From Flavobacterium sp. UBA6203 (lineage in GTDB: Bacteria > Bacteroidota > Bacteroidia > Flavobacteriales > Flavobacteriaceae), in the NCBI GenBank assembly GCA_002421645.1, contig DIST01000061.1, forward strand, positions 1 to 28,127: a stretch of DNA of 28,127 bases. Reading direction: 5' to 3'. Under the pieces are notes generated by a model, which made no database searches, was not told where the DNA came from, and was given only the letters and a program-made list of their open reading frames with translations. Below, piece after piece: positions 18,070 to 20,246 of this stretch. Every line of letters starts with the position of its first letter. Positions within the stretch are counted from its first letter, which is position 1. A program made the position numbers and the translations under genes.

Positions 18070-18124
18070 GAAATTCTGAAATTTTAAATCTCGGAATTGA
18101 TTTTTAATACTGCTAAATATATTC

Positions 18125-18132
18125 GATATTTG
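18125..18132 (+). promoter_or_regulatory. Near-consensus promoter box inside the cassette
   Basis: GATATTTG differs from TAnnTTTG at the first base and lies 18 bp before the ATG at 18151. Confidence 0.35.
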
Positions 18133-18150
18133 CATGAAAATAATTGGCTA

Positions 18151-18513
18151 ATGAAAGAATTTGACTTAAAGAAGCGAACAAAATCATTTACAATTTCAAT
18201 TTTGAATTTGGTAGATAATTTACCAATGAAAAATTCTACAAGAATTATTGCAAATCAATTGGGAAAATCTGGGAGTTCTGTTGGGGCAAATTACAGAGCT
18301 TCATTACGAGCAAGAAGTGATAATGAATATTTGTCAAAGATGAATATTGTTTTAGAAGAAACAGATGAATCTCATTTTTGGTTAGAAGTTCTTCAAGAAT
18401 TAAATGTTGTTGATAATAAAGTGTTGAATGAACTCCTAAATGAAGCAAATGAATTAACTGCAATTTTTGTAACAACCTTAAAAAACACAAAAAGCAGAAT
18501 TAATAATAAATAA
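18151..18513 (+). CDS. Four-helix-bundle protein (S23 / 23S rRNA intervening-sequence family)
   Basis: This small family (TIGR02436/PF05635 type) was first found in intervening sequences of 23S rRNA genes; bAvd of diversity-generating retroelements is a relative. The function of stand-alone copies is unknown. The 120-residue protein starts at ATG 18151, directly at the conserved DLKKRTKSFTISILNLVDNLP. The family hallmarks NSTRIIANQLGKSGSSVGANYRA and the Asp/Glu-rich helix KMNIVLEETDESHFWLEVL are clear. A TTG at 18097 is in frame but upstream of the likely promoter. The gene is enclosed by inverted heptamer arrays (18042-18069 and 18540-18567) with no rRNA or reverse transcriptase nearby, which suggests a small mobile or once-mobile cassette. 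Confidence 0.88.
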   Translation: MKEFDLKKRTKSFTISILNLVDNLPMKNSTRIIANQLGKSGSSVGANYRASLRARSDNEYLSKMNIVLEETDESHFWLEVLQELNVVDNKVLNELLNEANELTAIFVTTLKNTKSRINNK

Positions 18514-18569: not shown

Positions 18570-20246
18570 ATGGCACAAAAACCAAGCATACCAAAAGGAA
18601 CAAGAGATTTTTCACCAGCAGAAGTGGCGAAACGCAATTATATTTTCAGTACGATAAAAACCAATTTTGAGAAATTTGGCTTTCAACCTATTGAAACACC
18701 TTCGTTTGAAAATTCTGAAACCTTAATGGGAAAATATGGAGAAGAAGGCGATCGACTGATTTTTAAGATTTTGAATTCGGGAGATTATTTTAAAGATTTA
18801 AAGGCTGATATTCGTAATAATGCTTTTCTATCGGTAAAATTCAATTTGCTTGTTACTGGACTTATAAATGGATTGAAAAAAAATATTGCGAATTATTCGC
18901 ATAATCTTTTTTTAGAAAAGTTAGATTTTGGATTGAAATATATGTTTGAAAATGATTTTTCAAACAATAAAATAATTTCAGAGTTTTTGATTAGTAAAGA
19001 AAATGAAATTCTAAATTTTATTAATAGTGACGAATGTGATTTAGAAAAAGAAAGTCCTGAAGAGATGGTCTTTAAGCAAGAAAATATCTTTTTAGATTTT
19101 TATAATGCTTATTTAGAAAGTAAAACTTTAGATTATAAAAATAGTGGATCAAAAATTTCCGAAAAAGCCCTTCGCTACGATTTAACCGTTCCTTTTGCGC
19201 GTTATGTAGTGCAACATCAAAACGAAATTGAGTTTCCGTTCAAGCGTTACCAAATTCAACCGGTTTGGCGTGCAGATCGACCTCAAAAAGGACGTTTTAG
19301 AGAGTTTTATCAATGTGATGCCGATGTGGTGGGTTCGAATTCGCTTTGGCAAGAAGTGGAGTTGGTGCAATTGTATGACTCGGTTTTCACGCAATTAGGT
19401 TTAGGTGGCGTTACCATTAAGATTAACAATCGTAAAATCTTATCAGGAATTGCTGAGGTAATTGGCGCTTCGGATAAATTGATTGATTTTACGGTAGCCT
19501 TAGATAAATTAGACAAAATAGGTGAGGACGGCGTGAAAAAAGAAATGTTAGAAAAAGGCATTTCGGAAACCGCAATTGAAAAAGTACAACCATTGTTCAA
19601 TTTCACAGGAACAATCAACGAAAAAATAGAAAAATTAGCACATTTACTTGCTAATTCAGAAGAAGGAATGAAAGGAGTTAACGAGTTGCAATTCATTTGT
19701 GATAACGTTACCACTTTAGGCTTACAAACCGCTTTCTTGGATTTAGATGTTACATTAGCGCGTGGTTTAAATTACTACACAGGAGCCATTTTTGAAGTCG
19801 CTGCGCCAAAAGGTGTGGCAATGGGTTCGATTGGTGGCGGTGGTCGTTATGATGATTTGACAGGGATTTTCGGATTGAAAAACATGTCGGGTGTAGGAAT
19901 TTCATTTGGTTTAGATCGAATTGCTTTGGTAATGGAAGAAGTTGGTTTGTTTCCAGAGGCTGTTTTAGCCACATCAAAAGCGTTGTTCTTAAACTTTGGT
20001 GATAAAGAAGCTTTATATGCGATGAAAGCTATTGGAAAATTACGCCATAAAGGAATCAAAGTCGAATTATATCCAGATAAATCAAAAATCGACAAACAAT
20101 TCAAACACGCAGACAGAAGAGGAATTCCATTTGCAGTAATTGTAGGGGAATCGGAAATAGAGCGTGAAGAATTTGGGTTGAAAAACTTAGCTACTGGCGA
20201 ACAACAAAAAGTGGACTTTGCAACATTAGTTACTTTATTGCAATAA
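18570..20246 (+). CDS. hisS: Histidyl-tRNA synthetase with a large in-frame insertion
   Basis: HisRS charges tRNA-His. Class II motif 1 lies in [17 protein letters not shown], motif 2 in [19 protein letters not shown], the HisA loop in [15 protein letters not shown], and motif 3 in [15 protein letters not shown]; the anticodon-binding domain fills the last ~90 residues. All are intact. The protein has 558 residues, about 100 more than I recall for Flavobacterium HisRS (about 455-460). The excess lies between NSGDYF (69-74) and SEKALRYDL (197-205), a loop that is about 24 residues long in relatives. The inserted DNA is far more AT-rich than the flanks. Start is ATG 18570, 2 bp after the heptamer array. 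The frame is uninterrupted, and hisS is essential, so the product must tolerate the insertion unless another copy exists. Confidence 0.95.
18804..19127 (+). other. In-frame insertion in the HisRS catalytic domain
   Basis: Boundaries are approximate (residues about 79-186). My hand count over 18841-19140 gives 65 G+C in 300 (22%), against about 40% for 19201-19320. The segment translates into a mostly helical, Asn/Lys/Phe/Ile-rich domain with pieces such as [19 protein letters not shown] and [16 protein letters not shown]. It lacks intein hallmarks. I recognise no family. Confidence 0.75.

What the first reader, a model, noticed from the sequence alone, without database searches (positions are those of the whole stretch)
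18804..19127. About 100-residue foreign-looking domain inserted in frame in HisRS
The sequence shows HisRS motif 1 and motif 2 separated by an extra ~100 residues between NSGDYF and SEKALRYDL. The corresponding stretch in Flavobacterium HisRS, as I recall it, has about 24 residues. Hand-counted GC is 22% in the insert versus about 40% just after it, and Asn/Lys/Phe/Ile dominate. The reading frame is preserved through an essential gene. There are no intein splice residues. The insert lies in a hairpin loop at the surface of the catalytic domain. It could be a domestic regulatory domain, a decayed mobile ORF captured in frame, or a protective insertion (for example against a toxin or phage factor that targets HisRS). 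It is also next to a likely mobile cassette.
Basis: partly seen in the sequence, partly recalled or inferred. Interest (0 to 1): 0.78.

Follow-up and report, generated by a model that had tools for sequence, protein, structure and literature searches.

The report
Hypervariable swappable domain inside histidyl-tRNA synthetase
An essential protein-making enzyme of Flavobacterium carries an extra helical domain that differs almost completely between near-identical relatives and can pass between species, as if it were a recognition or escape site in a conflict with an unknown attacker.

Summary
The insert is real. Window HisRS (18570-20246 +, 558 aa) has a 124-aa loop where its nearest held relatives have 22 aa; it is 22% GC against 35-38% around it.

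It is not an isolated oddity. A search for long HisRS proteins listed 62 (window included) with C-terminal cores at least 95% identical to the window's. Their inserts fall into 33 groups at 80% identity and 12 BLAST families. Two proteins with identical cores have inserts 28% identical. Families recur in other genera.

In F. xueshanense and F. urumqiense about 450 bp of hisS, most of the insert included, is 93-97% identical while flanks are mostly 66-91%: a recombination tract. Within families the insert looks constrained (dN/dS 0.13-0.38, five pairs). Insert GC3 does not follow host GC3. AlphaFold2 gives a five-helix domain without a significant fold match. GlyRS and ProRS in 26 of the same genomes do not vary this way.

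Best reading: a domain kept diverse by balancing selection, probably because a phage protein or rival toxin acts on HisRS here and the variable head blocks it. The diversity and exchange are shown; selection and attacker are inferred. The mobile cassette next door is not associated.

The parts
18570..18782 (+). hisS 5' core, 71 codons ending NSG
   Evidence: 89-90% aa identical to near relatives over residues 1-82/83
18783..19154 (+). hypervariable insert, 124 aa (net +102 over the 22-aa loop); type A family
   Evidence: GC 22.3%
18786..18881 (+). predicted long helix 1 of the insert (stalk, inferred), residues 73-104
   Evidence: AlphaFold2
18882..19055 (+). predicted three short helices of the insert (head, inferred), residues 105-162
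   Evidence: pairwise identity 0.14-0.32 in blocks 101-160 of type A
19056..19154 (+). predicted long helix 5 of the insert (stalk, inferred), residues 163-195
   Evidence: last 9 residues of the insert-only model have pLDDT under 50
19155..20246 (+). hisS 3' core (ISEKALRYD onward: rest of the catalytic domain and anticodon domain) and stop
   Evidence: 98% aa identical to G001/G013 over residues 193-558; Pfam

Best explanation
The insert is a predicted five-helix domain set into the loop between HisRS motifs 1 and 2. SHOWN: it is one allele of a multi-allelic, extremely divergent set carried by nearly unchanged HisRS cores; families recur across genera and in one species pair a short recombination tract carries the insert; presence and absence have changed many times; GlyRS and ProRS do not vary like this. 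SUPPORTED: each allele family is constrained. INFERRED: diversity is kept by balancing (probably rare-allele) selection from an antagonist acting on HisRS, either a phage-encoded inhibitor or modifier or a toxin from rival bacteria. Two long helices form a stalk carrying a variable head that physically covers or changes the docking surface on the catalytic domain. A new head escapes the current antagonist, so rare and imported heads spread, while the catalytic core stays fixed because the enzyme is essential.
For: Of the 120 proteins listed (window included) carry a long insert on a C-terminal core >=95% identical to the window's. They fall into 33 insert groups at >=80% identity; 1804 of 1891 pairs have inserts <35% identical; P0005 and P0006 have identical 360-aa cores and inserts 28% identical. 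Of 84 pairs with cores >=99% identical, 74 have inserts <35% and 6 >=80%; shuffled inserts give mean 0.19. They span 12 of 31 BLAST families, some shared with Winogradskyella, Lutibacter, Wocania and Aquimarina. Recombination tract in L099/L116. dN/dS 0.13-0.38 in five pairs. Label 'long' needs at least 13 changes on the core tree, 8 forced by starred branches. Insert GC lower than core in 41 of 41; GC3 uncorrelated with host (rho 0.05, p 0.77). Insert model: mean pLDDT 80.6, pTM 0.74. In type A, mean pairwise identity per 10-residue block is 0.97-1.00 at residues 41-70 and 201-250 and 0.14-0.42 at 81-190. GlyRS and ProRS uniform in 26 genomes.
Against: No antagonist is known or found: no match of the window insert in phage genomes, none of two other inserts in viral contigs, no defence-family hit for three proteins. 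Within-family dN/dS is below 1, so positive selection was not seen directly; only 5 pairs (9 genes, one of them in two pairs) were tested and dS is above 1 in four of the pairs. The expected peak of synonymous diversity at the insert is weak and equally present in pairs without inserts. Most sampled same-genus genomes do without the domain, which a universal attacker would hardly allow. The low GC3 of the inserts is not explained by escape alone. The stalk/head contrast in conservation is modest: block 81-90, in helix 1, is as variable (0.25) as the head.
Confidence: 0.5

Rival explanations
1. Sensor: the variable head recognises phage or invader proteins and then shuts off HisRS, stopping translation in the infected cell. 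Diversity reflects the range of triggers, as in toxins with a variable sensing domain (CapRel-like, recalled).
For: Same population pattern as escape; the domain sits in the catalytic half of the enzyme between blocks 97-100% alike; allele families look constrained, as expected of a binding function.
Against: No match to any defence family for three proteins. HisRS has no toxic activity to unleash; the only route would be loss of charging. The state without the domain is common.
Confidence: 0.15
2. Internal function: the domain tunes tRNA-His acceptor-stem binding or links HisRS to a cellular partner; diversity follows co-variation with that partner.
For: Insert position ahead of motif 2; dimeric GlyRS has an insertion between motifs 1 and 2 that reaches the acceptor stem (recalled).
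Against: Alleles differ while the core stays the same and no linked gene was seen: in the near clade (5 insert, 17 other loci, so little power) the lowest p for a neighbour family within 5 kb is 0.27. Unrelated alleles on cores >=99% identical are hard to reconcile with a conserved ligand such as tRNA-His. tRNA-His itself was not compared.
Confidence: 0.13
3. No function: the loop tolerates in-frame foreign DNA, a selfish or accidental insertion that drifts quickly.
For: AT-rich inserts of many sequences at a permissive loop; lengths 93-169 aa; repeated presence/absence changes; outside the order loops of about 50-65 aa also occur.
Against: Constraint inside families; confident helical model for one type; recurrent families across genera, several matching by profile comparison; no significant copy of type A outside hisS in 27 genomes; no stand-alone homologue of type A; among the Flavobacteriales sequences read, loop sizes fall into about 20-25, about 40 and 93 or more residues.
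Confidence: 0.15

Closest known systems
Bacterial class IIa histidyl-tRNA synthetase (6nhi, Elizabethkingia)
   Different: 6nhi has a short loop; in the sequence alignment nothing matches window residues 78-186
Segmentally variable genes (PMC387263; passages read)
   Same: Variable segment inside a conserved enzyme; the passages discuss aaRSs and ProRS
   [quoted passage not shown] here alleles are unrelated between near-identical cores and exchanged between species
Target replacement against Bacteroidales toxins (BSAP; PMC4999547, part of abstract and passages read)
   Same: A target is replaced by a non-targeted version rather than lost
   Different: Those targets are surface molecules and the toxin gene is adjacent to the replacement; here the protein is cytosolic and no linked gene was seen
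Type I restriction HsdS recognition domains (recalled)
   Same: Variable domains swapped by recombination in conserved flanks, each allele functionally constrained
   Different: HsdS recognises DNA and is not essential
Insertion between motifs 1 and 2 of dimeric GlyRS (recalled)
   Same: Similar topological position
   Different: tRNA-binding; GlyRS of these genomes shows no such length variation

Membership tests
Histidyl-tRNA synthetase | Class II HisRS core and anticodon domain | tested here: met
   PF13393 and PF03129 above cut-off; 6nhi aligned over residues 3-77 and 187-548
Histidyl-tRNA synthetase | Sole HisRS of the cell, hence essential | tested here: inconclusive
   One HisRS in each of the 13 insert-bearing same-genus genomes, but the window's own assembly is not held
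Intein | Hint/splicing domain with its boundary residues | tested here: not met
   No intein family at E <= 1 in Pfam; insert starts with D or E in 154 of 160 rows, and the core after it reads S-E at the two fixed positions in 156 and 159 of 160
In-frame repeated mobile DNA (Rickettsia palindromic-element type, recalled) | Related copies elsewhere in the genome | tested here: not met
   Type A profile: significant matches in 2 of 27 genomes, both in hisS; five genomes have only weak matches (E 0.08-0.72) elsewhere. Other types were not searched this way
Toxin-immunity or BSAP-type cassette | Partner gene linked to the replaced allele | tested here: inconclusive
   No enriched neighbour within 5 kb in the near clade, 5 against 17 loci, low power. 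Over all 85 loci several gene families differ (p down to 1.9e-9), which I put down to genus
Segmentally variable gene | Long variable region between well-conserved regions | tested here: met
   Conservation profile
Known protein domain or fold | Significant match of the insert | tested here: inconclusive

The most novel reading that the evidence does not exclude
A cytosolic aminoacyl-tRNA synthetase serves as an immune-type locus: a trans-species, multi-allelic pool of a new helical domain, dozens of alleles deep in one species complex, spread by cassette-like recombination and maintained by an undiscovered class of phage or bacterial weapons that attack histidyl-tRNA synthetase.
Probability: 0.4. 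Interest if true: 0.95.

Novelty: new variant of a known kind. Interest (0 to 1): 0.85.

Why it matters
Hypervariable, horizontally shared alleles are familiar in surface antigens, restriction enzymes and toxins, not in an essential cytosolic translation enzyme. If the reading is right, it points to an unknown factor that targets HisRS, gives a genetic handle to find it (allele-specific resistance), and shows how an essential enzyme escapes attack. Even without the attacker, it is a domain family that no library used here names, and a natural record of which insertions a synthetase tolerates.

Tried and rejected
The window insert found only itself among 127 candidates; the type A insert profile found no stand-alone relative among 1119 candidates. 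Phage genomes: none for the window insert; with whole P0007, 22 records, at most 76% covered, which fits the core alone. Viral contigs: two HisRS genes with short loops and none for two inserts. PHROGs, seven inserts: six weak matches, best E 0.0063, five without function and one virion structural protein at 0.066. The idea that the upstream IVP gene brought the insert was rejected. A diversity peak around the insert was not supported: synonymous differences near it are high, but equally in pairs without inserts. Repeats in and around the insert are short or imperfect, as expected in AT-rich DNA. Papers: searches found no paper; some searches listed 3, 3 and 1, none on this by title and abstract start. 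Searches were for background. PMC4938167 was seen in passages only and did not help. Only the CC-licensed part of PubMed Central was searched. tRNA-His was not compared.

Limits of counts. The 62 near-clade proteins represent 90% clusters and were picked for length, so they show diversity, not frequency. P0002 and P0094 of the 120 (longer proteins, short loops) were set aside. In one search three loci gave no loop by my pattern (L123, L127, L140); the text printed for L127 shows a long insert that was thus missed. Nine twice-fetched loci were dropped (160 to 151 inserts); some loci and P proteins are still the same gene. The 31-family count depends on the BLAST cut-off.

Full report
OBSERVATION. 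The window encodes one HisRS of 558 aa at 18570-20246 +. Its loop between NSG and ISEKALRYD has 124 aa (18783-19154). G001 and G013, 98% identical over residues 193-558 and 89-90% over the first 82-83, have 22 aa there. GC is 22.3% in the insert against 35.2% and 38.3% in the flanks. The window lies in or near Flavobacterium, its hisS closest to UBA6195 (short loop), with F. celericrescens and F. sasangense near by; this is inference, as the window's assembly is not held.

HOW COMMON. Of 299 same-genus genomes, 291 gave a hisS match. Long inserts were read in 13: G014 and G067, G070, G081, G093, G171, G179, G192, G204, G252, G255, G301, G308. Some hits were partial at contig ends, and about 30 large genomes, whose frames were not printed, were judged from score alone, so 13 is a minimum. 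In the order sample 136 of 148 matched, with long inserts in G403 and G337 and G027; five further frames of 515-544 aa (G378, G393, G406, G430, G440) match without a gap at the loop and were not read. In the class sample 187 of 198 matched and the list of matches was cut, so not all were seen. Of five read from it, G450 has an insert of well over 100 aa, G571, G629 and G446 have loops of roughly 50-65 aa, and G498 has a short loop. Among the Flavobacteriales sequences read, loops have about 20-25, about 40, or 93 and more residues.

HYPERVARIABILITY. A search that admitted only long proteins and scored the HisRS core alone gave 2526 hits, of which the best 120 are listed. Sixty-two of these, the window included, carry a long insert and have C-terminal cores at least 95% identical to the window's. 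Their inserts form 33 groups at 80% identity, and 1804 of 1891 pairs are below 35%. P0005 and P0006 have identical 360-aa cores and inserts 28% identical. For the 84 pairs with cores at least 99% identical the median insert identity is 0.24, and 6 pairs share the insert at 80% or more; shuffled sequences give 0.19. Over 151 long inserts there are 31 BLAST families at E <= 1e-5. The window's family (type A, 36 members) also holds sequences from Lutibacter, Winogradskyella and Wocania. Another family joins Aquimarina, Winogradskyella and P proteins, and a third joins L149 (ALC-1), L071 (G403) and P0010, whose core is 99% identical to the window's. Profile comparison of the first 28 clusters gives matches between several (c3-c16 95%, c2-c7 91%, c2-c8 85%, c0-c2 83%, c5-c9 83%); only 5 of 378 pairs reach 50%, and the window's own cluster reaches at most 42%. 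One deep superfamily is therefore plausible but not shown.

MOVEMENT. F. xueshanense (L099) and F. urumqiense (L116) are mostly 66-91% identical in the flanking DNA and in the rest of hisS, but 93-97% from base 50 to 500 of hisS and 89% from 500 to 650; the insert lies at 213-567. In the same pair insert dS is 0.137 and core dS 1.205. This is one clear tract; only the eight pairs were scanned along the gene. The label 'long insert' needs at least 13 changes on the core tree of 85 rows, 8 forced by starred branches; F. lacisediminis (long) and F. cheniae (short) are sisters. Insert GC is lower than core in 41 of 41 genes, GC3 in 38 of 41, and insert GC3 does not correlate with core GC3. This suggests a circulating AT-rich pool that does not settle to host composition, or selection on composition.

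FUNCTIONAL CONSTRAINT. In five DNA pairs of the same family dN/dS in the insert is 0.13-0.38, against 0.06-0.13 in the core; dS exceeds 1 in four of the five, so these are rough. AlphaFold2 on full-length HisRS (mean pLDDT 69.3, pTM 0.52) gives residues 81-180 pLDDT 79-91 as helices, with lower values at both ends of the insert; much of the core scored poorly, which I put down to the shallow alignment. The insert alone gives mean pLDDT 80.6 and pTM 0.74 with helices 2-33, 40-54, 59-71, 73-81 and 92-124. I read this as two long helices forming a stalk with three short helices as a head; the topology is inferred from the secondary structure, as I had no coordinates, and only type A was modelled. 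Identity in type A is 0.14-0.32 in blocks 101-170, 0.25 at 81-90, 0.42 at 91-100, 0.34-0.41 at 171-190 and 0.97-1.00 in the core blocks 41-70 and 201-250. No significant fold match was found, which does not prove a new fold.

CONTROLS. GlyRS frames are 516-544 aa, and ProRS matches span 1458-1461 bases, in all 26 genomes tested, 15 of which carry the HisRS insert. The type A profile matches significantly only in hisS of G171 and G093 among 27 genomes; five others have weak matches elsewhere. The IVP gene is not associated. Neighbour gene families differ between insert and other loci over all 85 (p down to 1.9e-9), which I ascribe to the other genera among the insert loci; within the near clade (5 against 17) nothing is enriched.

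MECHANISM. Shown: many divergent alleles on a fixed core, families shared between genera, one transfer tract. Supported: a folded, constrained domain. Inferred: selection for rare alleles by an agent that contacts this part of HisRS. I prefer escape from an attacker because unrelated heads on one enzyme share no obvious common ligand, and because the short loop is a viable state. A sensor role, an internal partner, and a permissive loop are given as rivals. Evidence against: no attacker found, no dN/dS above 1, no clear diversity peak, and most sampled same-genus genomes do without the domain. In print: searches found nothing on this, in the CC-licensed library only. PMC387263 and PMC4999547 were read in passages.

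Noticed in passing
window 18097-18513 +: 23S_rRNA_IVP (PF05635) gene between GAATTTAGAATTTAGAA-type repeats upstream of hisS; 96-99% alike in L073, L111, L101, L097 and L148, 59% in L141 and L142, and not found within 1.5 kb upstream in the other 78 of 86 loci: probably a mobile intergenic gene.
   Followed up: partly
L005, L006, L011, L015-L018, L042, L043, L048-L051: A second loop type of about 40 aa (NFFYNKSKIELPESIEELQ...) recurs with clearly similar sequence in these loci, unlike the long inserts. L141, L142, L144, L158, L165, L167 and L168 (the last two F. davisii and F. columnare) have loops of the same length, sequence not read.
   Followed up: no
L172-L175: The same HisRS loop is also enlarged and variable outside the order (G450, G571, G629, G446).
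   Followed up: partly
P0006 and P0089: N-terminus and insert 96-97% alike but C-terminal core only 85%: a recombinant gene or a metagenome chimera.
   Followed up: no
P0002: 820-aa HisRS-containing protein with extra precomputed Pfam domains (PF02474, PF02784), perhaps a fusion or gene-calling artefact.
   Followed up: no
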